Source: Pseudofrankia coriaricola
GTDB lineage: Bacteria > Actinomycetota > Actinomycetes > Frankiales > Frankiaceae
Direction: 5' to 3'
Assembly: GCF_001854805.1 (NCBI RefSeq)
Contig: NZ_MBLO01000062.1
Span: 1-34,904 of the forward strand
Length of the DNA stretch: 34,904 nt
This document shows, in pieces, positions 1-34,879 of the stretch. The translations under genes were made by a program, and so were the position numbers. Within the stretch, counting starts at the first letter, position 1. The number at the start of each line of letters is the position of its first letter. The notes under the pieces are model-generated. The model did not search any database. It was not told the origin of the DNA and was given only the letters and a program-made list of their open reading frames with translations.

Positions 1-357
1 GCCGAGTACCGTGAGCCAACCGAGGAGGAATGGCGCGAGTTCCAGCAACACTTCCAAGCCCGCAAGCTGGAACTGGGCGACTGCGGCCGACCCTACGGCA
101 CAGGCTGCCAGCACGAACACTCGTGCCTGCGCTGCCCGATGCTGAGAGTCTCACCGGCCCAGCGAACCCGGCTGGTCGAAATCATTCGAAACCTCGATGA
201 CCGCATCAGCGAGGCCAAGATGAACGGCTGGCTCGGCGAAGTCGAAGGACTCCACTACAGCCGCACCAAAGCCAAAGAGAAACTCACCAGCCTCGACAAG
301 ACGATCCGCAACTCCCCGGGAACCCAGACCGACCTCGGGATCCCGACCATCAGATAG
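1..357 (+). CDS. Tyrosine recombinase/transposon integrase, C-terminal fragment (5' end outside window)
   Basis: The frame is open from the first base, so the gene begins before the window; 118 residues are visible. They include the segments RKLELGDCGRPYGTGCQHEH, CLRCPML and GWLGEVEGL. I recognise this Cys/His-containing tail from long actinobacterial site-specific integrases of transposon type, in which it follows the catalytic domain. The catalytic Arg/His/Tyr residues are not in view, so the call rests on the tail alone. The gene ends about 90 bp from the point where lanC homology stops on the opposite strand, so its element probably inserted into lanC. The ATG at 139 is an internal Met, not a start. 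Family fairly sure; element type unknown. Confidence 0.7.
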   Translation, partial: AEYREPTEEEWREFQQHFQARKLELGDCGRPYGTGCQHEHSCLRCPMLRVSPAQRTRLVEIIRNLDDRISEAKMNGWLGEVEGLHYSRTKAKEKLTSLDKTIRNSPGTQTDLGIPTIR

Positions 358-1085
358 CAGCAGCGGCCGACACCAGCCACCCTTCCCCGGACGAACACTC
401 CACATATCCGAGGAATGTCCTCTTTGCTTACTCCAGAAAAGTGGTTGGCGTGCCCGCCGTCGAACCGGTCGCTGGGCCGCCCGGCCGGCCCGGTGAGCGT
501 CCACCAGCCCGGCACTGCCTCGCCGTCATGGCTGATCGGTTCGCTGAGACGGACCAGGTACTCGAGGACGGCGTGTGTCGCCGTGCCGGCCGGGTCGCGG
601 TGTAGCAGGTATGAGCCGAGCCCGGTCAGCCCGCGGATGAGGTCGAACTCGGCCAGAGCGGGCAGATCGCTCCGGTCGAGTCGGGCGTGTGCGGCATCGA
701 CCCGTGACCGCGTCTGCCGGGCGATGTCGTGGTCCAGGCCGTCGAGGGCGTGGCGGTAGGACTGTGGCTGATGGGCGTTGGCGCAGGCCAGGACATGGGC
801 GAGCGCGGGCGCGCCGTAGAACAGGTGGCTGTCTGGTCCGGTGGTCAGTGCTGGTGCGGCGAGGTAGGTGATCCAGTCGTGGGCGGGCCGCCAGCGCGCG
901 AGTCCCAGGGCTGCGCGCTCGATGTGGAGCAGCGCGACGCCGGGGGCGCCGTGGGCCAACGACTGTCGCCACCAGTTCGTCGCCGTCAACGACGGCGCTA
1001 TCTCCGCGGGGTTTGTGAGGCGGTCGGCGATCGCACCGGCCAGGCCCGCCGTCCGAGAGTCGGCCGTCGCGGTCCGCGGGCTCAT
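255..1085 (-). pseudogene. lanC: LanC-like lanthionine synthetase (cyclase), 3'-truncated
   Basis: LanC cyclases add cysteine thiols to dehydrated Ser/Thr to close (methyl)lanthionine rings. The ATG at 1085 overlaps the lanB stop (TAATG), so translation is coupled. Recognisable LanC features are SLAHGAPGVALLHIERAA near residue 42, the FYGAPALAHVLA segment near 89, IRGLTGLGSYLL near 150, and GGHAN near 210. After GGHAN (about position 444) the normal continuation, a glycine-rich repeat and then the zinc-binding Cys/Cys/His residues, is absent. The frame runs through unrelated sequence to a stop at 255, overlapping the integrase gene on the other strand. A normal LanC is about 400 residues; roughly 215 are genuine here. 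Without the zinc site the product should not cyclise, so the pathway is probably dead or relies on another cyclase. Confidence 0.8.
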
Positions 1086-13373: not shown

Positions 13374-14518
13374 CCACCGATCATCCCATACGCTCTGAAA
13401 TCACCTGAGGCTCGTCGGCGTCGAGTGGCGACAGAGCCACTCCAACAGACGTGGCCGGTGGTGCAGCCGCCCGTACGGCGAAGCCTGGGACGCCGGCGGA
13501 CCGGGGCGGACGGTGGTGGACGCGGGCAGGGCTGCCACCAGGACCAACGTACAGCGGTGGAGTCACCGAACGTAACAGGCTTATCTTGCAATCGGAAGGT
13601 AGACCACGTAGACGGTCAGTCGGTGAAAGCCGTCGGCCGGGACTGGCGACAAGGCCCTACGATCGGTCCCGCCTGCGTTGGTCGGTCCACCTAACCCCAG
13701 CCATCGGCACCCCAGCCGTCGGCGCGTTGTGGAGGGGGCCAGCCGAGTCCGAGGCGGGCCAGGCAGGGGCCAACATAGGCGTGGCCGGCAGCCAAGGCAG
13801 CGGCCAGACATGCAAGGCCGCTGACGGCGGTGGAGCGCGGCGGATGAAGTCGAGCCCACGGCCAGCATCGGCGGGCGCTTCTGAACGTCTGTAGATCATG
13901 CGCCGATGCCCTCATGACCCTCCCCCGATCGGTATGGCCGATGCTCCGTCACTGCCCGCAGGCGAAATGCCGTACGGCGGTTGTACCGCAACGGGACCGG
14001 ATGTCGGCGGACTGGCCACCGAGGTCTACGGATCTGAAGGTTCTGACCCGGCTGAGGCGCAGGCTTGCCGCAGCCAGGGGAGAGGCCATCGGGGCGATCG
14101 TCTCTTTGGCACGGCGACAACACTTCGAAGATCGACAGCCTGGTCCGAAGAGACTTCCGAGTACAAATTGAGCGCTTTGCGACCGCAACGAATGTTGGCA
14201 TGCGGTGCCTACGCAGTCGCGGTTGGCCGAGTTCCTGATTGAGTGTCACAGGTTGAGCCCGCCGCTTGTCGTCTGGGGTCCGGGCATGAGAGAACTCACT
14301 GCACCGGCCGAAAGTGATAATCAGCGGATGCGCTGAGTAGGCGCTTGTCGTCGAGTCTTTCGAAGAGCAGACATCCCCCTATGCGACGCCAGCGGACGCC
14401 CAACTCGCGGCGAACTTCTAGGGACTGCGGCTGGGCGTTGCGCCAGTCGTGGCATGATCGCGCAGTCTTAGCCGGACCTGTCGTAGACAGGCGGGTCGCG
14501 AGTGCTTCGGGGGCGATC
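13374..14518. other. Long stretch without a convincing gene
   Basis: Short frames exist on both strands (for example 13914-14171 plus and 13896-14249 minus) but none shows a motif, a good ribosome site or the GC-biased third position of nearby genes. The TerD frame is formally open from TTG 14345, but its first ~58 residues are Arg/Ser-rich and look non-coding. This may be decayed element DNA. Confidence 0.4.
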
Positions 14519-16689: not shown

Positions 16690-16977
16690 ATGGGCACAAT
16701 CAGTCCGAGCGCCGGCGGTGGCCGCCGGCTGACGAAGCCGATCCAGCCAACCAAGCAGCCGACCCGAACCGATCAGCGGATTCTGCTGACCCTTGACCAA
16801 GTCCTCGCCGAGCTCGGCGGACCCGACGGGCCGCTGCCGCGCTCGACCTGGCACGACTGGCAGACCAAAGGCACTGGCCCAAAGGTCATCAAGCTGCCGA
16901 ACGGCCAGATTCGGGTCGCCCGCGACGACCTGAACACCTGGCTCGACGGCCTCACACGCGACCCGGGCGCACGATGA
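16690..16977 (+). CDS. xis: Excisionase-like small HTH protein
   Basis: A 95-residue protein with a winged-HTH/AlpA-type region: ILLTLDQVLAELGG, LPRSTWHDWQTKGTGP, KVIKLPNGQIRVARDDLNTW (residues about 32-88). This order (helix, recognition helix with R-S-T-W, wing, then arginine-containing strand and W-L end) is typical of recombination directionality factors next to actinobacterial integrases. It overlaps the integrase start by ATGA, so the two are coupled. Start ATG 16690; the first ~30 residues are Pro/Thr/Gln-rich, so a later start is possible. Predicted to bend att DNA and favour excision. Confidence 0.8.
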   Translation: MGTISPSAGGGRRLTKPIQPTKQPTRTDQRILLTLDQVLAELGGPDGPLPRSTWHDWQTKGTGPKVIKLPNGQIRVARDDLNTWLDGLTRDPGAR

Positions 16978-18575
16978 GCCGCGCTCAGGCCGGCGGCGCC
17001 ATCCCACCCGACGGGGAGGAACGGCGCATCACCTTCGACGTCCGTGTCTGGTCCGTCAAGGAGATCCGCCTCAAGAACGGTTCGAGTTGGCAGGTCAGAT
17101 GGCAGGTCGCCGGCCGGCCGCGGCCCAACACCCGCAACTTCGCGTCGAAGACCGCAGCCGAGTCCCGTCGCGCCGAGATCCTCACCGCGGTGCGCAAGGG
17201 TGAGGCGTTCGACGTCGAGACCGGTCTCCCGCTCTCCGAGTGGCGCGCACTCCCCCAGCCGGCACCCGACCCGGCGCCCGAACGCACCTGGCTCGCCGTC
17301 GCCCGCGACTTCGTCGACGCCAAATGGGCCGAACATCAGGCACCAGGCACCCGCCGTTCCCTCTCGGAAGCCCTCGGCTCCGTCACCCCAGCCCTGTTCG
17401 ATGAACCACCGCCGGCCCGCCTCGCGGGCCTGGTGCGCGAGGCGCTGGCCGGCTGGGTATTCCGCACCGGGAGCCGCACCATCCTCGGCCCAGACGGCCG
17501 CCGCGTCGAGAACGAACCGCCCGAAGGCTGGGCCGAGGTACTCGCCTGGATGGAGCAACACAGCCGGCCGATCAGCGACCTCGCCGACGTCGCCGTCACC
17601 CGCGCCGCGCTCGTCACGCTGTCACACCGCCTCGACGGAAAACCGGCCGCGGCGAACACCATCACCTGGCGCCGCATGTTCTTCAGCCAGGTCATCACGT
17701 TCGCCATCACCCACGGCGACCTCGAGGCCAACCCGCTGCCCGGTGCGCAGTGGACACCGCCCCGCAAGGTCGTCGTCGTCGACCGCCGGGCCGTCGTCGA
17801 CCACGGCCGTGCGCTACGACTCCTCGCCGCGGTCGCCGAGAGGGCCCCGGAGCTGGAGGCCTTCTACGCCTGCATCTACTACGCGGCGACCAGGCCGGGC
17901 GAGACGCAGGAACTCACCATCGACCAGCTGACGCTGCCCGAGACAGGCTGGGGCGAGGTCGCGCTGGAGGGCAACAACCCGGAGGTCTCCCCGCTCTGGT
18001 CCGACGAACCCGACCAGCCCAGGCAAGCCCGCGAACTGAAACACCGCGAGAAGGGTGAAGTCCGCCCGGTCCCCCTCCACCCCGACCTCGTCGCACTGCT
18101 ACGCCGCCACATCGAGCGGTTCGGGACCACGCCAGACGGCCGGATCTTCCGCTCCTACACGGGCGGAGCGGTCAAGACGAGCCGCTACCTGACCGTCTGG
18201 CGCGCAGCCCGGAACAAGGCACTGACACCAGCCGAGGTCGCCTCGCCGCTCGCGCGACGCCCCTACGATCTCCGCCACGCGGCGGTGTCACGCTGGCTGA
18301 ACGCCGGCGTACCACCCACCCAGGTCGCCGAATGGGCCGGACACAGCGTCCGCATCCTTCTCACCGTCTACGCCAAGTGCATCGTCGGCGAGGAGAAGCG
18401 CGCGCTCGGCCTCATCGACGCCTCCTTCGCCGCCGAACAGCAAACCGCCGAACCCCGGACAGCCCGGACCCAGCCCCTGGCCCCGAACCCGAACACCATG
18501 ATCGTGTCCACACGGAGTCCACAGACACCCGGAAACCACCGGACATCGACGGCCCCAACCGGACACCGTCCGTGA
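16974..18575 (+). CDS. int: Tyrosine site-specific integrase
   Basis: Catalyses integration of the element into the chromosome. The 533-residue protein has an arm/core-binding N-terminus (SWQVRWQVAGRPRPNTRNFA near 38) and a C-terminal catalytic domain: Arg307 in YYAATRPGE, the YDLRH box at 431-435 (the usual first His is Tyr, with Arg434 kept), His457 in EWAGHS and nucleophile Tyr466 in VYAKC. The Pro/Thr-rich tail after 480 is unusual but is repeated in the truncated copy at 21097-21582. It follows the excisionase gene and ends about 140 bp before a remnant of an acyl-CoA dehydrogenase 3' end, the inferred attachment site. It appears intact. Confidence 0.93.
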   Translation: MSRAQAGGAIPPDGEERRITFDVRVWSVKEIRLKNGSSWQVRWQVAGRPRPNTRNFASKTAAESRRAEILTAVRKGEAFDVETGLPLSEWRALPQPAPDPAPERTWLAVARDFVDAKWAEHQAPGTRRSLSEALGSVTPALFDEPPPARLAGLVREALAGWVFRTGSRTILGPDGRRVENEPPEGWAEVLAWMEQHSRPISDLADVAVTRAALVTLSHRLDGKPAAANTITWRRMFFSQVITFAITHGDLEANPLPGAQWTPPRKVVVVDRRAVVDHGRALRLLAAVAERAPELEAFYACIYYAATRPGETQELTIDQLTLPETGWGEVALEGNNPEVSPLWSDEPDQPRQARELKHREKGEVRPVPLHPDLVALLRRHIERFGTTPDGRIFRSYTGGAVKTSRYLTVWRAARNKALTPAEVASPLARRPYDLRHAAVSRWLNAGVPPTQVAEWAGHSVRILLTVYAKCIVGEEKRALGLIDASFAAEQQTAEPRTARTQPLAPNPNTMIVSTRSPQTPGNHRTSTAPTGHRP

Positions 18576-18867: not shown

Positions 18868-20679
18868 TTAGGGCGCTCTAACCGAGGCGCCCAACTCTTG
18901 CTCGAGACGGAACGCGATAGTCGCGGCCCGGACCAGTCGCTCGCCGATGTCAAGGGACGACTGGTTCCTACGATACCTACGTTCTTGGAGGCTAGAAAGA
19001 ATTCCTTCGACCCTACCACGAATCGGATCCCATCTCGGACTTATGTCGATCTTTATTATGTATCCGGGGTCTACTTGGGATAGCTGCCCGCAGGTCTGAT
19101 GTAGGGGAATAAGCGCGCGATCACAGGTTACCAGAGCAAGGTTGTTATTCAGGGTCGGGTCGCCTGTCCCGCCGATGGCGAGAAATCGGAGGAATGACAA
19201 GTCCCACATTGCACCCCAGGTCGCGTGGACGATATCGCCCTTACCAGGCTTCAGGAGACGCTGGACATAGTTTGGATCGTCAGACGATCCAAAGAAAGCA
19301 TTCAGGGCGATCTTCGTGGTGAGCGGCTCGACGATGTCCAGTTCGCTATCCATCCAGTCGATGAACTTCTGGAACCTGGAGACGCGGTCATCTGGGCCAG
19401 AGAATCCCCGGAGAAGAAGGAGTTGAATCTTGATCAGAGCAGCGTAGACGGGTGCTTGCATCAGCTCATAGAAGGATGATGTTGACGATTCGTCGAGAGG
19501 ATCATCCGAGTCCTGTTCCGGTCTTTGCAGAGGGTGCCTCGCCTCGGCCGGCGTTGGGTTGGTGAACTCTTCGAGGATCTGATCTGGTGCCCAGGACGCT
19601 ACGACCCGTGACGCATGCCCAAGTCGAAGGGCCCCCTCCAGGTCCCTGGGGCCACCGAGACGCTGCGAGCACGTCTCGTAAATCGCCAGTCCGGGAATTA
19701 TGTCGTCCCCCGCAATTGCCAGAAGAATTTTCTGGAGTCGCATCCGGTCGCCTTCTGGAAGTTGGTTTCGATAAAACCACCGATCCAGGTCAACTAGTAT
19801 GTTGCTGTCGACGAGTATGCGCCGCCGGAGCGTGTCGTCGAACCCGGTCGAGGCAATGAACGAGCAGCCATCCAATGTCCGCACGTCAGGTGGCGCCGAG
19901 CTCTCGATGGCTCGAACACTGCCGCCCGCGACTTGGTCGTCCCTAGCCATCGTCCGCAGCCAGGCCTCGATCTCGCGGGAGACCGGTCGCTGGCTTCTGC
20001 TCGACACGATTAGACAATTACCGTGGCGCCTCAATCCCTGGACCATCCGGGCCGGCGGGTTCGTGAGTGAAAGAAGTTTGTCGCCATTTGACGCGCGCCA
20101 CGTGACGTGGGTGTGCGAATACTCCAGCGTAGAGTCCGATACTTTGGTCGCCTTGCGCCAGACTATCCGATTAAACGGTAAGCCGATCTGCTGGACGTAG
20201 CTCTTCCACTCGCTATCAGTCCGCGCATGACGTCCGAAGTAGTAGAGGAACGAGTCGCACCACAGAGCGGCCGGAAATTTACCCTTCCGCGGGGCGAAGA
20301 CGGCCAGGTCGCTCCGTGGAATCCTTGGCGCGGTGTCGCCCAATGAGAGATCGACAAGTCGCGTGGCAGGCGGGAGATCTCCGGACTCGGTCAACTTCCT
20401 GACGGTCGACTGCACGTGGTAGATTAAGGTGCTCGACGGCTCGTCGCTGTGTTCGAACAGGAATACAGCCCAAATCTCGCAGCGGTCTGTAACCCGAAAA
20501 AAGCTTATCCCGATCAACCCGATATCGGGCGAGTGGAAGGCCACCGTCCGCCGGTATTCGCCGAGAAGGTAGGCGGCGGAATTGTCCCCGCTGCCGAGTT
20601 CGGGAACGTCCATGCGGGTCGGCGGTATGGAGTCGGATCCGGGAAACTGGAGAACGGCGGTGACGTTGCGGCGGGTCAT
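18868..20679 (-). CDS. Large PIN-like domain protein, possible defence nuclease
   Basis: A 603-residue protein. The C-terminal half carries a PIN-nuclease pattern: Asp291 in RRILVDSNILVDL, Glu335 in AIYETC, Asp482/Asp493 in GDIVHATWGAMWDLSFLR and Asp520 in LALVTCDRAL, the spaced acidic residues that bind metal. The N-terminal 285 residues (YRRTVAFHSPDIGLIGISFF; WLRTMARDDQ) match nothing I know and may sense or bind a partner. PIN enzymes usually cut RNA. ATG 20679 has AAGGGTG 7 bp upstream. It lies alone, opposite to its neighbours, between two att remnants, so it is probably cargo. By eye it is less GC-rich than the integrase. No antitoxin-like gene adjoins. An anti-phage role is inferred. 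Confidence 0.7.
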   Translation of the reverse strand: MTRRNVTAVLQFPGSDSIPPTRMDVPELGSGDNSAAYLLGEYRRTVAFHSPDIGLIGISFFRVTDRCEIWAVFLFEHSDEPSSTLIYHVQSTVRKLTESGDLPPATRLVDLSLGDTAPRIPRSDLAVFAPRKGKFPAALWCDSFLYYFGRHARTDSEWKSYVQQIGLPFNRIVWRKATKVSDSTLEYSHTHVTWRASNGDKLLSLTNPPARMVQGLRRHGNCLIVSSRSQRPVSREIEAWLRTMARDDQVAGGSVRAIESSAPPDVRTLDGCSFIASTGFDDTLRRRILVDSNILVDLDRWFYRNQLPEGDRMRLQKILLAIAGDDIIPGLAIYETCSQRLGGPRDLEGALRLGHASRVVASWAPDQILEEFTNPTPAEARHPLQRPEQDSDDPLDESSTSSFYELMQAPVYAALIKIQLLLLRGFSGPDDRVSRFQKFIDWMDSELDIVEPLTTKIALNAFFGSSDDPNYVQRLLKPGKGDIVHATWGAMWDLSFLRFLAIGGTGDPTLNNNLALVTCDRALIPLHQTCGQLSQVDPGYIIKIDISPRWDPIRGRVEGILSSLQERRYRRNQSSLDIGERLVRAATIAFRLEQELGASVRAP

Positions 20680-21096
20680 GTCGCACCCTTGGTCTGGCGA
20701 TTTATATATCTTAGAGCCCGTCGCGGGCAGTCCTTCGATCAGTTTCTACCGCGGTTCGGCCTGTCGGCTGAGACCTCCGGCGACTGGCGTCCTTCCTGTC
20801 ATCTCCTTGGCCCGCGACTGTCCAGAGGGCGATGTGCGGCAGCCGCCCGTGTGCGCGATGCTCGATCGCATAAGATCCAGTAACAGTATGCACTGGTGTG
20901 GCGAGAAAATCCGCGCTTTTGGTTACCTGAGTGGTTGCCTGCGGCTACTGGCATGGCGGTGTGTATGGCCGGGTCCGAGGCACGACAGCGTGGTCTCGGC
21001 GATGTCCATGCGATGTCGGTGGCTCGCAGGCTGGAGGCTTGGCCTCGCATCATCTGGCTTGACTCTAGGCCAATGTCTGCCGCAGCCGCTACGCTG
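20680..21096. other. Stretch without a convincing gene, upstream of truncated integrase
   Basis: Holds the putative promoter of the PIN-like gene near its left end. The plus-strand frame from 20896 runs into the integrase fragment, but its first ~67 residues have no similarity to integrase and no good ribosome site. It is probably a deletion or recombination scar. Confidence 0.4.
20700..20740 (-). promoter_or_regulatory. Putative promoter of the PIN-like gene with an internal dyad
   Basis: An AT-rich block TAAGATATATAAA (minus strand) lies about 20-35 bp upstream of the start and could hold a -10 element. Directly upstream, GCCCG-CGA-CGGGC (20716-20728) is a perfect short inverted repeat, where an operator would sit. 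The -35 is not clear. Confidence 0.3.
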
Positions 21097-21582
21097 GGGA
21101 TCTTCCGCTCGCAGACGGAAGACGCCGTCGAGACGAGCCGTTACCCGGCCGTCTGGCGCGCAGCTCGGAACAAGGCGCTGACTCCAGCCAAGGTCGCTTC
21201 GCCTCTCGCGCGACGCCCCTACGACCTCCGCCGCGCCGCGGTGTCACGCTGGCTGAACGCCGGCGTACCACCCACCCAGGTCGCCGAATGGGCCGGACAC
21301 AGCGTCCGCATCCTTCTCACCGTCTACGCCAAGTGCATCGTCGGCGAGGAGAAGCGTGCGCTCGGCCTCATCGACGCCTCCTTCGCCGCAGAGAGGGAAG
21401 CTGACAGCCGACCGGACGACCCGGCCCCAGCACCTGAAGGCGATCCCGAACACCATGATCGTGTCCACGCCGAGTCCACAGACACCCGGAAACCACCGGA
21501 CATCGACGGCCCTCACCGGACACCATCCGTGACCGACCTCGGGCTGACCGACGGACCGTCCGACGAAGACTTCGGCCTCTGA
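21097..21582 (+). pseudogene. Truncated integrase, C-terminal fragment
   Basis: About 161 codons homologous and in frame with the 3' end of the integrase at 16974-18575: GIFRSQTEDAVETSRYPAVW onward, through EWAGHSVRILLTVYAKC, to the same tail ending EDFGL. The catalytic Arg region and the whole N-terminus are missing. The box reads YDLRRAAVS, with Arg for His after LR, so it is decayed as well as truncated. The second att remnant follows. Remains of an earlier related element. Confidence 0.88.
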
Positions 21583-22539: not shown

Positions 22540-24118
22540 GTGAGTGACCGGGTTTGGGAGAGTTGGTCACGGCCTTCGGAAGCGGAGGGCCGGGATCCGG
22601 TGATCGGGTCTCTGCGGGTGGCGTTCGGTCACCTTGCGAGGACCATGCCGACGCTTTGGACGCCTGACGCCGGTAGCTCCGAGCCCGCCGAGAACGGCCT
22701 TTTGGGCGGTCCGTTCGAACCGCTGCAGTATCCGACGACTGCTGTGGTGCACCGGCTCGGGGGCGATGCCGGTGACGAGTTCCTGATCGAGCAGCCGACG
22801 CTGGCGGTGCCCTCATGGGTGCGTGGGAAGGGTGCGCGGCTGGCCGCGCATGAGCGGCTCCTGCTGAGTTGCCGACCAGGCGGTCCGGCGGCCTTGTTGG
22901 CGGCGGCGGTGCCGGCGACGTTTCTGTCCTCGCGGGTCAGCGAGCGCACCCGTGACCGCATCGCGCGGTTATGGCGCCCGGTGCTCGTCGCGTATTTCAC
23001 CGGATGGGACCCGACCAGTCCGCATCTCGAGTGGGTGGGCGGTGCCGTTCTTCGAACCGCGCGTTGGAAGTACGCGTCCGGTCATTCTCTTCCGGGTGCC
23101 CGCGAGGGCTGAGGCGGCGGAGGTCGAGCAGGAACTCGAGAGTCTGCTCGCGGGCGATCCCGGTCCTCACCGGTTCGGGTACGTTCTGCCTTCGGAGCCA
23201 TCCGCGGCCGAGGGCCTCGGATTCGAGCGGCACCACCCGGCGACCGCGAAGCTGAAGCAGGACGTGGCTGACTTCGGTGAGATCGCCGCCCTTGGCGATC
23301 TCTTTGACCTGCCGGATCCGTCGATCATCGTGCAGCAGGCGAAGGGCAAGGGGGAACTCTGCACCGCTGACCAGGACGGAGCGGTGCGGGTCGTCAGGGG
23401 AGCGGATCTGCGCCGCGACGGGACCATCAGGGTGGCCGACGGGCAGGCGACCTATGCGGTCATCTCCGCCGAGAAGCAGCTGAAGGCGGGTGACCTCCTT
23501 CTCCGGGCGCATGTTCGGTCGGCGGATTCCCTGTTTCCGGTCGTGGAGGTCGCCGAGGAGGATCTACCGCTGGCGTCCAGTGGCACAGTGATCGTCTTGC
23601 GGCCCAAGGGCGGCCTCGGCCTTGATGAGCAAGATCTCGCGGCTGCGGCGTACTACCTGCGTTCGCCGACCGCCCGCAGACTGATCAACGCGGAGCGGAG
23701 CAACCCGCTGAGCCTGGCACGCAGTGAGCTGCGAAGGGTACGTGTTCCCAGGGCTGACGGGTCGCTGCGTGCGGCGCTCGCTGACCTGAACGACGCCGTC
23801 CGTGAGTTTGATCGGTGGCGGATGGAAGCGCAGGACGCGCTTGAGGACGCCTTCATGGAGGAGTCGGTGCGCGCGATGCGTGCGCACCTCGTCGACAAGG
23901 GCCGGTTGCTGCGGCTGCGTCACGAGGCCGCTGCGTTGATCGACGACTCCGCGTTCGTCGTCCGTACCCGGTACCCGTACACGGTCGCCTTTCGTTGGCG
24001 ACGGGCTGAGGCGGCGCTCAGTGCCGATCATGCGGCCGATGCCCTCAACGAAGTCCTGCAGGCAGCGGAGGTCCTGCTGTGCTTTCTGGCCCTCGTCTCG
24101 CTCGCGCTCGCGAACGAG

Positions 24119-24124
24119 CACGGG
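24119..24124. repeat. Target-site duplication, left copy (IS21-family element)
   Basis: CACGGG directly before the left end; repeated exactly at 26812-26817. Confidence 0.85.
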
Positions 24125-24231
24125 TGGCTCTGGCGGTTCCATCTGGCCCCGCCAGGGCGGTTTGAAGTGGCCCCACCCGGAGGGTGGTGGGGCCACGGTG
24201 TGGCGGCTTGAAGTGGCCCCACCTGGGTGGG

Positions 24232-25017
24232 TCAGGCGGTGGCCTGGCGGGCGGCGCGGGCGTGGGCGAGGCGGTAGGAGTCGGTGCCGGTTTCGATGAT
24301 GTTGGCGCCGAAGGTGAGGCGGTCGACGATGGCGGCGCAGAGTCTCGGGTCGGTGAAGGTTTTGGTCCAGCCGGAGAAGGACTCGTTGGAGGCGATCGCG
24401 ACGCTGTTCTTCTCTTCGCGTTCGGTGAGGACCTGGAAGAGGAGTTCGGCGCCGCGGCGGTCGAGTTCCATGTAGCCGAGTTCGTCGATGCAGAGGAGGT
24501 CGACGCGGCCGTAGCGGGCGATGGTCTTCGCGAGTTGTTTCTCGTCGGCGGCCTCGGCAAGTTCGTTGACGAGTTTCGCGGCGAGGGTGTAGCGGACGCG
24601 GTGGCCGGCGATCGCGGCGGCGGAGCCGAGGGCGATGAGGAGGTGGGATTTGCCGGTGCCGGAGTCGCCGATGAGGCAGAGTGGTTCGCCCCGGGTGACC
24701 CAGGCGCAGCTGGCGAGGGTGTTGACGAGGGCGGGGTTCACGGTGGGGTTCGCGGTGTAGTCGAAGTCGGCGAGCCATTTCGAGCGGGGGAAGCCGGCGG
24801 CTTTGACCTGCCGGTCGGAGCGGCGGCGGTCGCGTTCCTCGCATTCGGTCATGAACAGTTCGGCGAGGAACCCGCGGTAGGTGAGGTGTTCGCGTTCGGC
24901 GGCGTCGGCGATCTCGGGGAACCGGGCGCGGACCGTCGGGAGGCGTAGGGCTCGGCAGGCCTGGTCGATGGCGGCGTCGGCGGCCTGTTCGGTGACGTTG
25001 CGGCGTAGCGCGTTCAT
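24232..25017 (-). CDS. istB: IS21 helper ATPase IstB
   Basis: AAA+ ATPase of the DnaC/IstB type that assists the IS21 transposase by organising target DNA. The 261-residue protein has Walker A GDSGTGKSH in LCLIGDSGTGKSHLLIALGS and Walker B LLCIDELGYM. An N-terminal helix region (YRGFLAELFMTECEERDRRR) is typical. The ATG overlaps the istA stop by ATGA, so it is coupled. Length matches the family (about 250-260). Intact. Confidence 0.95.
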   Translation of the reverse strand: MNALRRNVTEQAADAAIDQACRALRLPTVRARFPEIADAAEREHLTYRGFLAELFMTECEERDRRRSDRQVKAAGFPRSKWLADFDYTANPTVNPALVNTLASCAWVTRGEPLCLIGDSGTGKSHLLIALGSAAAIAGHRVRYTLAAKLVNELAEAADEKQLAKTIARYGRVDLLCIDELGYMELDRRGAELLFQVLTEREEKNSVAIASNESFSGWTKTFTDPRLCAAIVDRLTFGANIIETGTDSYRLAHARAARQATA

Positions 25018-26681
25018 GACATTTCTCCTTCAGATGCTGGGGGTGGGGCCCGGGCGGCGGGCGGTTGGGGTGCGCGGCGGCGCAGGAGCTGGTCGTAGTG
25101 GGCGACCGACGGGGCCGGGCGGCTGTCGGGTGGCAGGCCGGCCAGGCGCCGCGCGGTCAGGCTCACGACCGGGCTGGCCGTCGGGGCCGGTGCGGGTGTG
25201 GGCCGGCGGGCCTGGGTGGCTTTGCGGGCCTCGACCGCGACCACGTCGGCGGTGGACGCGCCGGTGGCGACCGCCGCGGTCAGGCCGGCGACGACGTCGG
25301 GGTGGGACAGGTGGCGGTGCAGCAGGAGGACCTCGACGAGGGCCCGGGTCCCGCCGCTGTCGCCGTGCGCCCGCCTGGCCGCCGCCCAGAAGGCGTCGTG
25401 CGCCGGCGTGAACATCCCGCTGGCGCGGGCCTGGACCAGCGCGGTCGCCCCCGGCAGCGCTCCGGGCTTGCGGGCCAGGACCTCCAGGTAGTGGTCCAGC
25501 AGCAGGCTCTGGGAGCCCTTGCGGACCGCGCGGGTGTGCCGGGCGACCTCGACCCGGCCGTCGAGGATGACCAGCTCGGAGGCGCGCAGGAACACCCGGA
25601 CCCGCTGGCCGATCAGGCGGACCGGTACCGAGTAGTGGCACTGGCGGACCGTGACCTGCCCGTAGCGGTCGACCCGCGGGGTCAGCAGCAGCCCCGGCTC
25701 GAACGCCTCCTCCGGCAGCGCCCGCAACAGCCCCACCTCCGCCGCGAACGCCTGCCCGACCGTGACGAGGCGTCCCTCGATCCGCCGGCCGTCGTCGGCC
25801 AGGTCGGCCTGTTCGATTCGCCCGTTGAGCTCGGCGAGCGTGTCGACCTCGGGCACCGGCACCAGATGGTTGCGCCGGAACCGGCCGACCTCGCCCTCGA
25901 CCCCGCCCTTCTCGTGCGCGCCCTCAACCCCGGGCAGGCAGTAGAACGCGTCGAAACCAAAATGGGAACGAAACAGCACCCACCGGTCGGACTCGGTCCG
26001 GTTACGGCCCAGCAGCACCCGCGACACCGCGGACCGCAGATTGTCATAGCGGATCTTCCCGGCCGGGACACCGCCGAGCACCGTGAACGCGTGCAGATGA
26101 CCCTCGATGAACGCCTCCTGTCCCTGCGAGGCGAACACCCGGTGCACGGCCTTGCCCGAATACGACAACCGCAACGTGAACAGGAAACACTTCGTCTGCA
26201 CGCCGGAAAGCAGAACCCACAGATCCCCGAAATCAACCTCGGCTTCCTGCCCCGGCAGATGGGTCTGTAACACGAACGCGGTCTCCATTCCACGACCAGC
26301 CTCGGCCGCGATCTCCGGCCGGCGCCGGGCCACATAGTCACGCACCGTCGAGTACGCGACCGCCTCGCTCATCCCGTCCTCCGCGACGAGGCGGTCACGG
26401 ACCCGCCTCGCGGTGTGCCGCTGTTTCCGCGGAGCGTCGAGATCCGCCACCAGCATCGCGTCGATCGCCGCCTTGAAGGTCTCCAACCGCGCCGAGACCC
26501 GCACCGGGGTCCGCCGCGGAACCGGAGCCGCCGACTCCAACGCCTGCCGCACCGTCCGCCGATGCACCCCATGCCGCTCGGCCAACTCCCGGATCGACAT
26601 CCCGCGGCGCGCATCCACCCGGATCGCCTCGAACTGCTCGACCCTCGACGACCCCACAGCCCCCCACAGCCCTCCCCGCAA
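25014..26681 (-). CDS. istA: IS21-family transposase IstA
   Basis: DDE transposase. The 555-residue protein has an N-terminal HTH (MSIRELAERHGVHRRTVRQA), then a catalytic core with VDFGDLW (first Asp), KIRYDNLRSAV (second Asp) and AHEKGGVEGEVGRFRRNHLV (Glu), the usual IstA order. A Pro/Ala/Arg-rich tail follows. The frame starts at TTG 26681; GTG 26657 (beginning MGSSRVEQFEAIR) may be the real start. It overlaps istB. Slightly longer than many IstA proteins (about 400-520) because of the tail. Intact. Confidence 0.94.
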   Translation of the reverse strand: MRGGLWGAVGSSRVEQFEAIRVDARRGMSIRELAERHGVHRRTVRQALESAAPVPRRTPVRVSARLETFKAAIDAMLVADLDAPRKQRHTARRVRDRLVAEDGMSEAVAYSTVRDYVARRRPEIAAEAGRGMETAFVLQTHLPGQEAEVDFGDLWVLLSGVQTKCFLFTLRLSYSGKAVHRVFASQGQEAFIEGHLHAFTVLGGVPAGKIRYDNLRSAVSRVLLGRNRTESDRWVLFRSHFGFDAFYCLPGVEGAHEKGGVEGEVGRFRRNHLVPVPEVDTLAELNGRIEQADLADDGRRIEGRLVTVGQAFAAEVGLLRALPEEAFEPGLLLTPRVDRYGQVTVRQCHYSVPVRLIGQRVRVFLRASELVILDGRVEVARHTRAVRKGSQSLLLDHYLEVLARKPGALPGATALVQARASGMFTPAHDAFWAAARRAHGDSGGTRALVEVLLLHRHLSHPDVVAGLTAAVATGASTADVVAVEARKATQARRPTPAPAPTASPVVSLTARRLAGLPPDSRPAPSVAHYDQLLRRRAPQPPAARAPPPASEGEMS

Positions 26682-28893: not shown

Positions 28894-31800
28894 TCAGTGG
28901 GCCGCCGCCCGAGGGATGGCAGCGGCGAGAAGGCGTCGTTCACGCTCGCCCGTGACTCCCTCGACGCGGGCGCCGGTGCACTGGAGTCGCAGGGTGAGTT
29001 CGCGACGGCCAATCGGTCGCCCTTGCTCGTCGAGCCGTGTCAGCGTGAGGCTCCTGTCTGCGCCACCGGTCATGAGGCAGTCCTCGCCGCGGAATAGGAC
29101 CGCCGTCACCGCTGCTCCGTGTGTCCGCTCCTCCCAGAGCGGCCTCGGTTTGTCGTCCCCGCCAAGCCGCCCTACCGCGACCGTGCCGTCGGCACGTCCG
29201 ACCGCGACGAGGATCGAGTCGTGCGACAGCACCGCGTCGAAGCTGGTGACACGCGCTCCAGGCGACAACTCGACGAGATCCGTCGGCAGCGCGGGGCGCC
29301 CGACCGTCGTCAGTCCCATGGACGTCCGTCGGGTGGTGGCGAGCGCTGCCGCGCCAACGAACGTGTCAGGAAGCTGGCCTCCCACAGGCCCCACGTTCTT
29401 GATTAGTTGACAGCGGGTTCCGCTGATCGGGTCGTGTCGCTGGATCTCCCGGCGGATGTAGGGGTCGTCTGGCTCCGAAGGTGGCAGAACGGTCAGTACC
29501 AGATCGCCATCGATGTCGCGAAGCCCGTGCAGATGAGGGTCAGGGCGACCCCGGGACGCTCGCACGAAGCCTGCGCCGGTCCACAGGTGGATCTCGAGAC
29601 GCCCAGAGGCCAGGAGCACCAGATCCCCGAAAGGGCTAACGGCGACTCCCTGCAAGTCCCTGGGCAGGTCAGCGAAGACCGTGTCGGGACCCGATCGGTC
29701 ACGTGGCGCCAGCGGCCAGCGGCGGATCTTGTTGTCGCTGTAGTAGGCATACACCGCATCGTCGTCGGCTACGACTGGCCGGGAGAGGGCAAGCACGCGG
29801 GCCGTCTCCTCAAGCCGCACCCCGGTCAGGTCGGCATTGCGAAGATCGATTTCGCGCAGGTCTGCGTTGTCGAGGTTGGCGTATCGCAGCGACGAGTTGG
29901 AGAAATCCAGGCCGCTCAGGTCTGCGCCGGCGAGGTGCGCGTAGTCGAGGTCGAGCCCGGACCAGCTTCCGGGAGGAAGTACCGGTCGGGCGGCGGCGAG
30001 CAGCGACAGTGCGTTGCCGCCGAGGCTGCCGGGGCCCGAGCCGCGGACAGCCGAGCGGGCCAGGCCCAGCAGCCGCTGAATTACCTGGTCACGCTCGCTC
30101 TCCGCAAGTTCCCCGTCACCGATCATGAGAGTGACGAAGTCCATGACCTCGGACCGCAGCGGCGCGGCGATCAACAGCGGCCGGGCGTCGCCGTGGCGCA
30201 GAGCCCCAAATATTGCGCACGCGAAGAAGTACTCGCGCATCGAACGGTGGAAGAAATCGACGGGCCAGCGGTCCAGGTCGACACCCTGGAACGGCTTGAG
30301 CAGTGACCGGATCCCGATACGTGCCCGGGCGTCATCAACAGCCTCCGCTCCCAGCGAGGCGACTGGCCCATCGCTCATCCGCCACAGCGTCGCGGCCAGT
30401 TCGTGGTCGCCCCAGGAGCGCAGCTCGATGTGGGTCTTCCCGTTGAGGAACAGTTCGGCGGCCATTTTCTCAAGGACTGTCTGGACGTTGGCGACGGTCT
30501 CGTCGTCTTTGACCTCCAAGGAGTCGTCAGCCAGGCCCCAGATCTTGCGCCGGAGGCTGCGTTCGACGTATTTGCGGTAGAGCACAAGCTCGTCGAAATG
30601 GTCGTCTGGCAAATCAGGCAAGGTCTCCTTGATCATTTCAAGGAACAAGGGCTTACGTGCCAGGCCGACCGGGTCGTACAGGGTCAGCAGCCGGTCGAGC
30701 TTCGCCTCGGCGTCGACGCGCCGGGCGAACGTGCGCAGGTGGCTGGTGACCTTGTCGCGGGCAGCGGGTACCAGCCGGAGGATCCGCGGGCGACCGACCC
30801 GGTCGAGGAACCGGTCCTGGTCCCGCTGGCGCTCGAAGAACTGGGTCCGCGACGTGATCAGCAGCTTGGACCGGTGGAACACCTCGTGGCAGGTCGCGAG
30901 CAAGGCGATGTTGCTCCGCAGCGAGGCCGGGTCAAGACGGACGGACATCTCGTCGAAGCCGTCGAGAATCACCAGCGTCTGGTGACGGTCGGACGCCGCG
31001 TTCCACTGGGCGACGGTGACATCGATGTCCGCGAGACGCCGCTCCAGCAGATCACGCCCGTCACGGACGTTGCGTAGGTCCTTGAGCGCGATTCGCAACG
31101 GGATCCAGCCTCCGCGCGGGTCGCGTAGCGCGTCCCGGGCTAGCGACCGGCTCAGCTGGTAGGTGAAGAAGCTCTTGCCTTCGCCGAACTCGGCGAGCAA
31201 CAGCAGCGACCCCGACTCTGGGCGCGGGTCTGCCAGCCAGGACTGGATCTCCACCTCCAGGGTGGTGCCAAGCGGGGTGCCACGGTCGTCCGCGGCCCAG
31301 GGTTCGACGAACTCATTGAGCAGGTCGCGGAACCGGCTCCGATCCTCTCCGGAGAGGCAGTGCAGGTCATCGTCGGACAGGTAGGCCCGCAGACTGTCGG
31401 GATACCTGACCGGCTTGGTCAGCCGCGTACGCCACGCGGCGGCGACCTCGCCGCGTGGGGCAGACTCCCCGGCATAGGCGTCCTCGCCGTAGACGGCGGC
31501 GTAAACGTCTGGGTCGAGCGCGAGAAGCCCGCCCACGCCGCCCCGTGGGCTCCAGATCTGGACGTCAAACGGATAGCGGCCGGCGGTCTGCCAAGCGGTG
31601 AGCCTCTCATCTAGCTCCGGGGTCGGATCAGAGAGCGGCGAAATAATCACAAACTGGTCAAATGCCTCCCCTTCTCGCTCGGCCAGACGCCCTGCGACCT
31701 CGCGCGTGGTGAGTGGTACATCACAGATCTCCACATGACAGGCAACGCTCTCCGCATCCACGACCGCGCAGTCGAACCGGATCTCCTGTGTCAGCGTCTT

Positions 31801-33186
31801 TTCTGCAGCAAGCGACGTTCGCAGAGCCTTGTCCAGCGTCGGCGGGAGCGCGAACACCAACCGCAGGACATCCAGCAGGCACTCGCCCACCGAACGGCCA
31901 GCAGGGCCGATCAGCCCTTGGATCACGATTGTGTCTACATGCACGATCTGCTCTGCCGGTTCGTTCGTTGAGGGCTGGGGCTCCGGATCGGCGAACGACG
32001 GATCGTTGCCCTCGGCGAGCGCAGCCCAGACGCCGACCACCCATTGACACCGATTCATATCCGCCGACAGTACTTCCCGAACTTCATCGTCGAGTACGAA
32101 GCCGAACTCGGCCTCAAGCTGTTCGCGAACATCGCCTTCCAGGCCCGAAAGAATCTCGGCTAGTTCCGTGCGGACAGCCATCACGTTGTCACTTGAAATA
32201 CCGTTAGCCAAGCGCCGCCGCACCGCCGACAAGCGGTTCCGCACGCCGACTTCGCCTTCTTGCCCGGGCGAAACTGGGCTGAGTTTGTATGCGGTGAAGC
32301 CATCTGGAAGAGCGTCGTCTCGGGCAGAGATAAACAGGACCCGTGACGTTCTGGGTATCATTGGAAGCAGCAGTTCGACGCCCGCCGACCAGGTCCACCC
32401 ATCGAGGATAATCAGGAAGGCGGCGTCCGATAGAAGCCGTTCCAGCCGAGCCAATCCTTTCTTCACATCCTCGACATGTTCCAGGTCTCCGAAAATATTT
32501 AGGATATGGCCGATCGCGTCAGAGAGGGACGATCCGTCGAAGTCGTTGCGGCGATGGCCAGGCCATGCGATCCCGTCGGGAAAAGCCATGCGGACCTCCG
32601 GATCATGGACGACCACGGTAGCGAGCAACGTCTTCCCGGAGCCAACGTTTCCAAGTAGCCCAACGACAGGAGTAGAAGCCTCGTCCAGCAATAGTTCACG
32701 AATCCTCGCCAGGTCGTCAGGCCGGGATACATAGGAGGCGGGAACCTCTGGCAGCTGGTCGTAAGGAGGAACCACCCTCCTGGGTAGGGACGCCTCGGGG
32801 TCGCCAACTGGCGACGGGAAGGCCGGCGCAGGGCCACCCGGGAAGCCTGGCGGACCAGACGGACGCGCCGTTCCTGCCACGGCAACACGGATCCTGTCCA
32901 GGAGCACCTCGCGTGCCCGTTCTTCGCCGAGCCCGAAGAGGTCGAAGGAGACCAGACCAGCCAGTAGCCCAGAAAGCTGACAGTCCTCGATCTTTACGGG
33001 CACCAGGTTTCGCTTCTCGCCGGCGGGATCCTCGCCGAAGAGAATCCCCCACTCGGCCTGAGCGACAGCCGACGCCAGGTATTCCGCCGAGACGACGATG
33101 ATCGTACGTACCGCCATCCGAATAGAGTCCTGAACCACCGAGATTCTGCGCGCCCCCGGCACCATCTCCCATGCCTGCACCCGCAC
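28894..33186 (-). CDS. TIR / NB-ARC-like / NACHT / pentapeptide / beta-propeller STAND protein
   Basis: A 1430-residue chain from GTG 33186, with TIR homology continuing in frame to 33270 (IDLYISHASGDAGWAEW). Order: TIR (VRTIIVVSAEYLASAVAQAE near 26-45); an NB-ARC-like ATPase with Walker A GLLGNVGSGKT (176-186) and Walker B FLIILDGW (257-264); a possible nuclease-like segment (FDCAVVDAESVACHVEI, 471-487); a NACHT ATPase with Walker A LLAEFGEGKS (663-672) and Walker B LVILDGFDEM (738-747); a helical part with FFHRSMREYFFACAIF; pentapeptide-type repeats (ADLSGLDFSNSSLRYANLDN); and WD40-like beta-strands to the end. TIR domains cleave NAD or signal; STAND NTPases switch on sensing. An immune role is inferred. 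Two NTPase modules in one chain is unusual. The start is unresolved. Confidence 0.85.
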   Translation of the reverse strand: MRVQAWEMVPGARRISVVQDSIRMAVRTIIVVSAEYLASAVAQAEWGILFGEDPAGEKRNLVPVKIEDCQLSGLLAGLVSFDLFGLGEERAREVLLDRIRVAVAGTARPSGPPGFPGGPAPAFPSPVGDPEASLPRRVVPPYDQLPEVPASYVSRPDDLARIRELLLDEASTPVVGLLGNVGSGKTLLATVVVHDPEVRMAFPDGIAWPGHRRNDFDGSSLSDAIGHILNIFGDLEHVEDVKKGLARLERLLSDAAFLIILDGWTWSAGVELLLPMIPRTSRVLFISARDDALPDGFTAYKLSPVSPGQEGEVGVRNRLSAVRRRLANGISSDNVMAVRTELAEILSGLEGDVREQLEAEFGFVLDDEVREVLSADMNRCQWVVGVWAALAEGNDPSFADPEPQPSTNEPAEQIVHVDTIVIQGLIGPAGRSVGECLLDVLRLVFALPPTLDKALRTSLAAEKTLTQEIRFDCAVVDAESVACHVEICDVPLTTREVAGRLAEREGEAFDQFVIISPLSDPTPELDERLTAWQTAGRYPFDVQIWSPRGGVGGLLALDPDVYAAVYGEDAYAGESAPRGEVAAAWRTRLTKPVRYPDSLRAYLSDDDLHCLSGEDRSRFRDLLNEFVEPWAADDRGTPLGTTLEVEIQSWLADPRPESGSLLLLAEFGEGKSFFTYQLSRSLARDALRDPRGGWIPLRIALKDLRNVRDGRDLLERRLADIDVTVAQWNAASDRHQTLVILDGFDEMSVRLDPASLRSNIALLATCHEVFHRSKLLITSRTQFFERQRDQDRFLDRVGRPRILRLVPAARDKVTSHLRTFARRVDAEAKLDRLLTLYDPVGLARKPLFLEMIKETLPDLPDDHFDELVLYRKYVERSLRRKIWGLADDSLEVKDDETVANVQTVLEKMAAELFLNGKTHIELRSWGDHELAATLWRMSDGPVASLGAEAVDDARARIGIRSLLKPFQGVDLDRWPVDFFHRSMREYFFACAIFGALRHGDARPLLIAAPLRSEVMDFVTLMIGDGELAESERDQVIQRLLGLARSAVRGSGPGSLGGNALSLLAAARPVLPPGSWSGLDLDYAHLAGADLSGLDFSNSSLRYANLDNADLREIDLRNADLTGVRLEETARVLALSRPVVADDDAVYAYYSDNKIRRWPLAPRDRSGPDTVFADLPRDLQGVAVSPFGDLVLLASGRLEIHLWTGAGFVRASRGRPDPHLHGLRDIDGDLVLTVLPPSEPDDPYIRREIQRHDPISGTRCQLIKNVGPVGGQLPDTFVGAAALATTRRTSMGLTTVGRPALPTDLVELSPGARVTSFDAVLSHDSILVAVGRADGTVAVGRLGGDDKPRPLWEERTHGAAVTAVLFRGEDCLMTGGADRSLTLTRLDEQGRPIGRRELTLRLQCTGARVEGVTGERERRLLAAAIPRAAAH

Positions 33187-33315
33187 ACGGAAGCCAGCTT
33201 TTTCCAGCTGCCATCCAATCCATTCGGCCCAGCCAGCATCGCCCGACGCATGCGAGATATATAGGTCAATACCAGTAAGTTAAGAGGGGTCACTACCGGA
33301 ACTTCTTGTAGCTGT

Positions 33316-34879
33316 CTACGCAGCTCGAGGTCGCCTCCTCGTCAATTTTTCGTCATCACGTCCCGCGATTTCACAACATTCGGCGGATGGCTGGGGAGTG
33401 GGATGCGTGGCCGGGGTCACGGCGAGGACGGTGATGGCTGGGGAGTCGGTGTGCCGGACGGTGGCGTCGGTGGCACGTTTGACCCGGTAGTAGTTGTGGC
33501 GGCCACGTCTGATGACCCTGGGGTTCGTGCGTTCGCGACGTTCGTTGAGCCGTTCGAGGATCTCTTCGTAGGTTTCCCGGAGCGCGCGGTCGTGCCGGTC
33601 AGGGGGAAAAATCCGCCTGGTCGGTGACCTGGCGGCGGGTGACACGCAGCGAGCGTATGAAAGAGAGCCGGTCGGGATCCTCGCCAGCCTCGTCGGCGGC
33701 GGCTGTCATTATCTTTCGGATGGCGTAGTGGGCGAGCAGAAGCGCCCAGAGCTCCTGTCTCACCAGGTCCGGAGACTTCGACCGCAACACTGCACCGGCA
33801 CCTCGCATATGCGTCTTGATCTCGTCGAAGGTGTTCTCTTCTTCCCACCGCTCATGGTAGGCCGCCGCGATTTCCACGGCGGGGACGTCCGCCGGGTCCA
33901 GTACGCTGGCGAGTAGGCAGAATATTTCATTCGCACCGTTGCCGGGTCGGTTCGCCACGGTGTATTCGACGACGCGGGCGATGAGGACGTCGTCCGCGTC
34001 GTCGGCGGGCAGCACGCCTTCGCCACGGGCGGCGGCCGTGGCCGCGGCAGTCAACCGTCCCCGCCGCTTTCCCTGGATCTTCGGGTTGACCAGGACAGTG
34101 AGGAAGGACCCGTCGTCGAGGACGTGGACGACGGGAGTCCGCACCGAGGCGGACAGCCGCCAGGCCAGGTCAGCACCGGTGGCACGGACCTGTTGCCACA
34201 GCTCGAAGCTGTAGAAGTTGCGGTCCGCGAGCAGGAGCATGCCCGGGCGCAGACGGTGCGACAGCTGGGCGGCCAGGGCACGTTCACCGACCCGGCACGA
34301 GTCGATCTCAGCGCCGACGACCGCGTGGGTACCGGCCTCGACCAGCCCGACCACCAGAGCTTTCGGGAAGGCACCGGGATCGGCCTCGCCGCCGGCATAG
34401 CCGAACTCGGCGGCGTTGTCCGGGGAGTTGGGCAGGTCGAACTGGGTGCCATCGATCACCATCAACCGCCGCCCGCCCAGCCAGGCGCCCTTCGTGCCCC
34501 GCCCTGCCTGTGGGAGGGCGAGCCGGTCGAACAGCAGGCGCAACGGTTCGGAACCGAGGCGTTCCCGGGCCTGGCAGATCGCCGGCGTCGTCGGTACCCG
34601 CCATTTCGGGTCCCACGAGCGGAACGCTTTCAACGACGAGACGAGCTTACGCATCACCTCCTCATAGGAGTCCTCAAAGAACAGGCACATCGCCAGCACG
34701 AAATAGACCACGACGTGTGCCGGCAGGAGCCGGACCCGGGTCTGGCGGCGGCCGGCGCGGTTGACCGCCTCATCCACGTCGTCGCGGGATACCACGCTCG
34801 CCAGTACTCCGATAGAAATCCAGTCGGTCAGCCGGCCACCCGGTACCGCCCGCGGAATGCCACTCTGCCCACGCTCCAC
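33316..34879 (-). CDS. IS4-family transposase, in two frames joined at CCC-TGA
   Basis: DDE transposase. Frame 1 (34879-33599, GTG start, 426 residues) has LMVIDGTQFDLPNS (first Asp), LLLADRNFYSFELW (second Asp) and YHERWEEENTFDEIK (Y-2-R-3-E-6-K), the IS4 signature. It stops at TGA 33601-33599 after DQADFSP. The +1 frame continues at once with DRHDRALRETYEEILERLNE and GRHNYYRVKR, the expected IS4 C-terminus, to a stop at 33316. The junction is TTT-TCC-CCC-TGA-C: either a one-base indel or a +1 frameshift on CCC-TGA. The N-terminal part (LPAHVVVYFVLAMCLFFEDS) is typical. The right terminal repeat is beyond the window; the left end was not resolved but must lie within about 50 bp of the TIR gene. 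Confidence 0.85.

What the first reader, a model, noticed from the sequence alone, without database searches (positions are those of the whole stretch)
28894..33270. One polypeptide with TIR, two STAND NTPase modules, pentapeptide repeats and a propeller
Seen: two separate P-loop/Walker B sets in one continuous frame, the first NB-ARC-like (GLLGNVGSGKT/FLIILDGW), the second NACHT-like (LLAEFGEGKS/LVILDGFDEM), with a TIR in front and a pentapeptide plus WD40-like region behind. Known: bacterial TIR-STAND and NACHT proteins act in anti-phage defence and normally have a single NTPase. Inference: this may be a fused two-stage sensor/switch, or two ancestral defence genes joined end to end.
Basis: partly seen in the sequence, partly recalled or inferred. 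Interest (0 to 1): 0.8.

Follow-up and report, generated by a model that had tools for sequence, protein, structure and literature searches.

The report
Disrupted bacterial immune protein, two NTPases
A soil actinobacterium carries a damaged copy of a large immune-type protein with two molecular switches in one chain; relatives suggest that doubling the switch is a repeated design, but here the first switch is only half there and the gene has lost its start.

Summary
One open frame (33270→28894, 1458 codons) carries TIR, an NB-ARC-type P-loop, a NACHT module, pentapeptide repeats and a WD-type propeller. Three corrections matter. (1) The first NTPase is only the nucleotide-binding half: ARC and winged helix are missing, and its Walker B is LDGW. 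(2) A conserved domain of unknown family sits before NACHT. (3) The 5' end is cut: an in-frame TAA (33282-33280), no ATG/GTG/TTG before codon 29, and an IS4-type transposase gene directly upstream. This copy probably makes no full-length protein.

Residues 346-1458 are a constant core found in five other actinobacterial genomes. The N-terminal slot varies: EAD1–2×αCTD–full NB-ARC (Frankia nepalensis), trypsin then STAND, caspase-like, or HsdM methylase. Three of six members have a STAND-type P-loop before NACHT; in none is the core a separate gene. Unrelated TIR–NACHT–NACHT proteins occur in the same genome and two relatives (one 92% identical). Tandem-STAND chains thus recur; the literature searches made here listed no description, in a library that lacks most subscription journals. 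Best reading: a modular NLR-like defence protein with NACHT as the working switch. A two-stage switch stays open for the intact relatives.

The parts
28894..33270 (-). Open frame of the STAND protein (1458 codons and stop); no canonical start codon before codon 29 (GTG at 33186)
33280..33282 (-). In-frame TAA stop immediately upstream of the frame
32836..33270 (-). TIR domain (residues 1-145), first residues missing; E of the AEW motif is present
   Evidence: TIR_2 4-120 E 1.7e-24, 33-51% identity to 16 TIR stretches of the same genome; role of the Glu recalled
32251..32775 (-). NB half of an NB-ARC domain (residues about 166-340): Walker A GLLGNVGSGKT (32629-32661), Walker B-like FLIILDGW (32395-32418); ARC and winged helix absent
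   Evidence: profile 4-108 of 248
31993..32235 (-). Helical segment (residues 346-426), start of the core shared with 5 homologues
31471..31905 (-). Conserved domain X (residues about 456-600), possibly restriction-endonuclease-like; ExK present only in the two Micromonospora members
   Evidence: helix/strand order; no Pfam or PDB sequence match
29986..31398 (-). NACHT module (residues 625-1095): Walker A LLAEFGEGKS (31171-31200), Walker B LVILDGFDEM (30946-30975), then helical and winged-helix parts
   Evidence: NLRP3 Z 18.0, model 280..794; key motif residues invariant in 6 of 6
29836..29952 (-). Pentapeptide repeats (best stretch, residues 1107-1145)
   Evidence: E 2e-13
28984..29805 (-). 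WD-type beta-propeller (residues 1156-1429)
   Evidence: Seh1 3f3p Z 13.1, rmsd 6.8, 209 aligned; low confidence (pLDDT under 50) over model 893-987
33599..34879 (-). IS4-type transposase gene directly upstream; the element's ends were not mapped
   Evidence: Nterm_IS4 8.2e-30, DDE_Tnp_1 5.2e-15

Best explanation
This is a 5'-truncated member of a small family of modular, NLR-like actinobacterial proteins, most likely for defence. The family has a constant core: a helical segment, domain X, NACHT, pentapeptide repeats and a WD-type propeller. It also has an N-terminal slot in which effectors and adaptors are swapped. Here the slot holds a TIR and the nucleotide-binding half of an NB-ARC. In an intact protein the propeller and pentapeptide part would sense an invader or a disturbed host process. 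NACHT would exchange ADP for ATP and oligomerise, and clustering would switch on the N-terminal effector (for TIR, NAD+ cleavage and growth arrest). The first P-loop of this copy most likely no longer cycles; at most it binds nucleotide or acts as a spacer or dimer contact. Shown here: the domain order, the missing ARC, the missing start, the constant core with variable slot, and the fold match of a predicted NACHT and propeller. Inferred: sensing, oligomerisation, NADase output, removal of the start by the IS, and loss of function of this copy.
For: Domain calls; NLR and WD fold matches of the core model; core aligned in 6 members with the key NACHT Walker A and B residues invariant. A scan of genome contigs found five homologues (24) with different N-termini: EAD1–αCTD–NB-ARC (20), HsdM methylase in two Micromonospora, STAND_TPR-type ATPase (96) behind a trypsin in another frame, and a caspase-like domain (101, 102; both under the cut-off). 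NB half less like the F. nepalensis NB than the core is like its core (36.6% against 59%; 54, 57). GC3 of TIR 0.69 and NB 0.63, against a median of 0.855 and minimum of 0.72 in 16 TIR stretches of the same genome. No start codon, and an IS4 transposase upstream.
Against: No activity is known to me for any of the 6 members. PADLOC has no model for the whole protein; its hits are four weak TIR-region matches. The frame is still open over 1458 codons, so the gene may be used from a non-canonical start (ATT is codon 1) or from GTG at 33186. The ends of the IS were not found, so its role in the truncation is inferred. The TIR–NB model failed (pLDDT 41.8), so the fold of that half is untested by structure.
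Confidence: 0.62

Rival explanations
1. Two-stage switch: both NTPases work in series, the first setting or licensing the second. In this copy it would be inherited from an intact two-NTPase ancestor; F. nepalensis would be the working form.
For: F. nepalensis has a complete NB-ARC (profile 5-242 of 248) and NACHT in one 1855-codon frame. A Streptomyces member has STAND plus NACHT. TIR–NACHT–NACHT is conserved at 92% over 1531 positions in one relative and 40% over 1602 in another.
Against: In the window copy the ARC and winged helix are missing and the Walker B second acid is G. In three of 6 core members no NTPase match was found in the slot, so a second switch is not part of the core design.
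Confidence: 0.18
2. Chimeric pseudogene: a deletion or recombination joined the TIR–NB half of one gene to the core of another, then an IS removed the start; it has no function and no design to explain.
For: The core homology starts abruptly at residue 346, a few residues after the NB end; NB is closest to other NB-ARC proteins of the genus; low GC3 in the front half; no start; IS4 and IS21 genes and integrases nearby.
Against: No stop in 4.4 kb; NACHT motifs intact; a related fusion with NB-ARC in the same place exists in F. nepalensis; the N-terminus differs between most members of this family.
Confidence: 0.2

Closest known systems
Bacterial NACHT (bNACHT, NLR-related) antiphage proteins
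   Same: Tripartite layout of N-terminal effector, central NACHT and C-terminal sensor (layout as described in passages of PMC12169576); NACHT motifs and NLR fold match.
   Different: An extra P-loop module and domain X before NACHT; pentapeptide plus propeller behind; no activity known; this copy lacks its start.
TIR–NB-ARC (AP-ATPase) proteins of the same genus
   Same: The TIR–NB half resembles proteins of the same genome and relatives: TIR 33-51% to 16 own-genome stretches, NB up to 42% among the loci held.
   Different: The relatives read here (L052, L053, L063, L064, L065) go on for hundreds of residues beyond the NB fold; the window switches to another core straight after it.
EAD1/EACC1-type modular conflict systems (PMC7159879, PMC8195603; passages only)
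   Same: A constant part with rapidly exchanged effectors, EADs, caspase and trypsin; EAD1 and an EACC1-type caspase match under its cut-off occur in the core's relatives.
   Different: The passages seen describe no tandem NB-ARC–NACHT chain; the constant part here is domain X–NACHT–pentapeptide–propeller.

Membership tests
NACHT-clade STAND NTPase (residues 625-1095) | Walker A GxxxxGK[ST] and Walker B hhhhDGxDE | tested here: met
   AEFGEGKS and LVILDGFDEM; F, G, G, K of Walker A and ILDGFDEM of Walker B invariant in 6 of 6 members; Pfam over its cut-off
NACHT-clade STAND NTPase (residues 625-1095) | NBD followed by helical and winged-helix parts as in NLRs | tested here: met
   NLRP3 7vtp Z 18.0, rmsd 6.1, 405 aligned, model 280..794; fold match of a prediction only
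NB-ARC (AP-ATPase) (residues 166-340) | Nucleotide-binding half with Walker A | tested here: met
   NB-ARC 29.3 bits over the 23.5 cut-off, profile 4-108
NB-ARC (AP-ATPase) (residues 166-340) | ARC and winged helix | tested here: not met
   Profile 109-248 unmatched; the core starts at 346; present in F. nepalensis, profile 5-242
NB-ARC (AP-ATPase) (residues 166-340) | Walker B with two adjacent acids (rule as in passages of PMC12258605) | tested here: not met
   LIILDGW here, LLVLDD in F. nepalensis
TIR NADase | TIR domain by profile | tested here: met
   TIR_2 87 bits, cut-off 28; the first few residues are missing
TIR NADase | NAD+ cleavage | not testable with these tools
   Needs an assay; the Glu of AEW is in line with relatives, its role recalled
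bNACHT / NLR-related antiphage protein | N-terminal effector, central NACHT, C-terminal sensor | tested here: met
   for the domain order; layout rule; that the C-terminus senses is inferred
bNACHT / NLR-related antiphage protein | Protection against phage | not testable with these tools
   No assay possible
Avs (AVAST) or another PADLOC system | Match to a PADLOC model over most of the protein | tested here: not met
   Only four weak TIR-region hits, best 1.1e-5
PD-(D/E)xK nuclease (domain X) | Profile match and D...ExK motif | tested here: inconclusive
   ExK in 2 of 6 (both Micromonospora), lost in the window (EIC); no Pfam match in 5 of 5 scanned (Paractinoplanes was left out); hhalign to one NA-iREase3 stretch negative; domain not folded alone

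The most novel reading that the evidence does not exclude
Actinobacteria of this group build tandem-STAND immune proteins in which two NTPase switches in one chain work in series or as an AND gate. Such chains are seen in three forms (NB-ARC + NACHT, other STAND + NACHT, NACHT duplicated behind TIR) and would have arisen independently. The window locus is a decaying member in which the first switch has already been lost.
Probability: 0.22. Interest if true: 0.75.

Novelty: new variant of a known kind. Interest (0 to 1): 0.5.

Why it matters
STAND proteins are described as one effector, one switch, one sensor. Chains with two STAND modules, found here in several forms, one of them conserved between species, would make a testable question of what a second switch adds: a threshold, two-signal control or larger assemblies. 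The family core also shows how actinobacteria exchange whole N-terminal modules in front of one sensor, including a methylase, a trypsin, a caspase-like domain and an adaptor with RNA-polymerase αCTD. The window gene itself is of little use as an object, because it has lost its start and half of its first switch; the intact F. nepalensis and TIR–NACHT–NACHT proteins are the ones to study.

Tried and rejected
Tried without result. The TIR–NB structure model came out at pLDDT 41.8 and is not used. Viral contigs: no relative of the core or of TIR–NB found with the patterns used. Plasmids: only distant matches in 3 records. The IS ends could not be set: no near copy in the genome or in the 8 genus genomes, and no plasmid match covering 80% of the query; the scaffold has an N just upstream of the window. 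I first suspected a frameshift in the transposase; three relatives end at about the same place, so that was dropped.

Rejected. 'NB-ARC and NACHT are one overlapping match': the two Pfam stretches lie about 400 residues apart. 'Homologues are separate genes': 0 of 6. 'Core common in the class': only 2 of 393 sampled genomes hold it at E 1e-20 and 2 of 35 of the order at E 1e-60, the same two genomes.

Literature: PMC10294775 (the bNACHT paper of 2023, known from a reference list) is not held. The listings of searches showed no paper on a tandem NB-ARC–NACHT or NACHT–NACHT bacterial chain, judged by title and start of abstract; of the papers listed I opened five, passages only. One search was swamped by unrelated uses of 'stand'. 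Most subscription papers are not in that library, so absence from print is not shown.

Full report
What is there. The protein lies on the minus strand, from 33270 down to the stop at 28894-28896. Pfam finds TIR_2 (residues 4-120), NB-ARC (186-291), NACHT (695-813) and Pentapeptide (1107-1145), each over its cut-off. An AlphaFold model of residues 346-1458, made with five homologues, has mean pLDDT 66.6 and pTM 0.45. Foldseek's best match is NOD2 (5irm, E 3.9e-13); VIA-align gives NLRP3 7vtp Z 18.0 (rmsd 6.1, 405 aligned, model 280..794) and the WD propeller Seh1 3f3p Z 13.1 (rmsd 6.8, 209 aligned, model 811..1084). So NACHT and propeller are supported by fold, though part of the propeller (model 893-987) is of low confidence.

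The first NTPase is half a domain. NB-ARC is matched only over profile 4-108 of 248, whereas the F. nepalensis homologue matches 5-242. By pairwise alignment the NB fold of the window ends near residue 340. From residue 346 on the sequence belongs to the constant core: 53% identity over the first 81 residues to F. nepalensis 728-808, 59% over the whole core. About 270 residues that carry ARC and winged helix in F. nepalensis are missing. The Walker B reads LIILDGW instead of LLVLDD. A structure model of residues 1-430 failed (pLDDT 41.8), so this rests on sequence. Partial profile coverage alone would not show it: other NB-ARC rows of the genus also match only part of the profile; the argument is the short distance to the core.

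The gene is cut at its 5' end. A TAA stands in frame at 33282-33280 and there is no ATG, GTG or TTG before codon 29. In 16 TIR-bearing frames of the same genome 16 to 500 frame residues precede the match (these are open-frame lengths, not proven starts). An IS4-type transposase gene (33599-34879, minus; Nterm_IS4 8.2e-30, DDE_Tnp_1 5.2e-15) lies directly upstream and runs to about the same C-terminal end as three relatives. The ends of the element were not found. I infer that its insertion removed the start and promoter.

A constant core with a variable slot. With a two-sequence alignment of the core, a scan of genome contigs (84,980 species genomes by the tool's description) returned 5 loci: F. 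nepalensis CN7, Micromonospora parva, Streptomyces sp. KL109B, Paractinoplanes tereljensis and Micromonospora trifolii. The scan used only two short peptide patterns, so the number is a lower bound. Six members including the window align over the core; M. trifolii only in part, because its frame breaks. Their N-termini differ. F. nepalensis: EAD1 43-129, two RNA_pol_A_CTD stretches, NB-ARC 308-531. The two Micromonospora: HsdM_N and N6_Mtase. Streptomyces: a STAND ATPase (PADLOC STAND_TPR, residues 233-426, 7.4e-22) with a trypsin domain in another frame just upstream. Paractinoplanes: a caspase-like domain (EACC1-type caspase 85-251, 5.3e-8, 32.6 bits against a cut-off of 140; Peptidase_C14 also under its cut-off). 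Three of six (window, F. nepalensis, Streptomyces) thus have a P-loop of STAND type in the slot; in the other three no NTPase match was found there. In no member is the core a separate gene.

Domain X. Between the slot and NACHT lies a domain (window about 456-600) predicted as helix, helix, strand, strand, helix, strand, helix, strand. Both Micromonospora members, which carry a methylase in the slot, have HVECK; the window has HVEIC, and the three remaining members also lack the Lys. This would fit a restriction-endonuclease-like domain, live beside the methylase and dead elsewhere. No profile (0 of 5 members scanned), PDB sequence or single-sequence hhalign supports it, so it remains a guess.

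Is the front half a swapped module? The window NB is 36.6% identical to the F. nepalensis NB, but 42% (L046) and 40% (L017) to two NB-ARC proteins of the genus (compared only with loci held at that point, chosen because they matched the query; neither frame has a NACHT row). GC3 is 0.63 in the NB and 0.69 in the TIR, against a median of 0.855 and minimum of 0.72 in the 16 TIR stretches found in 19 own-genome loci examined; the core has 0.71 (346-600) and 0.81 (beyond 600), so the drop does not fall exactly at the junction. This favours a separate origin of the front half, or relaxed constraint; it does not decide between them.

Other tandem chains. In 8 genomes of the genus I compared by eye the listed NACHT rows and NB-ARC rows. 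Non-overlapping NB-ARC and NACHT in one frame occur twice: the window and F. nepalensis. Two separate NACHT matches in one frame occur three times (G000:C207, G005:C153, G006:C1); these are TIR–NACHT–NACHT proteins. The G000 and G005 proteins are 92% identical over 1531 positions, the G006 one 40% over 1602, and the two halves of the G000 protein are 34% identical over 340 positions, an internal duplication. Weak or decayed P-loops would be missed by these searches.

How it most likely works. By analogy with NLR-like bacterial NACHT proteins (effector, NACHT, sensor; passages of PMC12169576), the propeller and pentapeptide part senses, NACHT switches and oligomerises, and the N-terminal effector fires, for TIR by NAD+ cleavage. 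Every functional step is inferred. For the window copy I expect no full-length product. For intact two-NTPase relatives a serial switch is possible and untested.

Literature. PMC7159879 and PMC8195603 (passages only) describe constant modules with exchanged effectors, EADs and STAND NTPases; the passages seen do not describe a chain with two STAND NTPases. PMC12258605 (passages) gives the Walker B rule and reports fungal NLRs that match both NB-ARC and NACHT models, whose NB domain the authors treat as one. The listings of searches showed no description of a tandem chain; the library lacks most subscription journals.

Noticed in passing
L058 (P0006 residues 457-489) and L059 (P0007 residues 293-317): A segment like the C-terminal half of Pup, the bacterial ubiquitin-like tag, lies inside the Streptomyces and Paractinoplanes chains between the slot and the core. 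Pfam Pup 31.9 bits (cut-off 27) in the first, under cut-off in the second; TIGR03687 under its cut-off in both. It could tie these proteins to the proteasome.
   Followed up: partly
L057 and L060: Micromonospora parva and M. trifolii have an HsdM-type DNA methylase in the slot before domain X (with ExK) and NACHT: possibly a restriction-modification pair fused to a NACHT switch. In M. parva a stretch of 200 residues in front of the methylase has no Pfam match.
   Followed up: partly
L077:1267-5937, L078:2428-7548, L079:1943-6643: TIR–NACHT–NACHT proteins with hydrophobic stretches (by eye) after each NACHT; the halves of the first are alike, so it arose by internal duplication.
   Followed up: partly
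L050:2384-8842 (minus): Another chain of the same genome: TIR, a region that looks like a phosphoesterase by eye, NA-iREase3, a NACHT match, pentapeptides (by eye) and a large WD40 array.
   Followed up: partly
L051/L056, P0002 residues 159-282: Two RNA polymerase alpha C-terminal domains stand between EAD1 and NB-ARC in the F. nepalensis protein; they might bind DNA or the transcription machinery.
   Followed up: no
window 255-4225 (minus): Lantibiotic dehydratase (1085-4225) and a LanC-like protein (255-1178) next to each other: a lanthipeptide-type gene cluster.
   Followed up: no
window 16974-18575 and 20896-21582 (plus): A tyrosine integrase and a second, shorter frame with a nearly identical C-terminal part by eye (Phage_integrase under cut-off), with IS21 genes at 24232-26681: a mobile, rearranged region.
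   Followed up: no
window 14345-15991 (plus): A TPR–TerD protein (tellurium-resistance-type domain).
   Followed up: no
window 18868-20679 (minus) and 22952-24211 (plus): Two long open frames without any Pfam or NCBIfam match inside the same mobile region.
   Followed up: no
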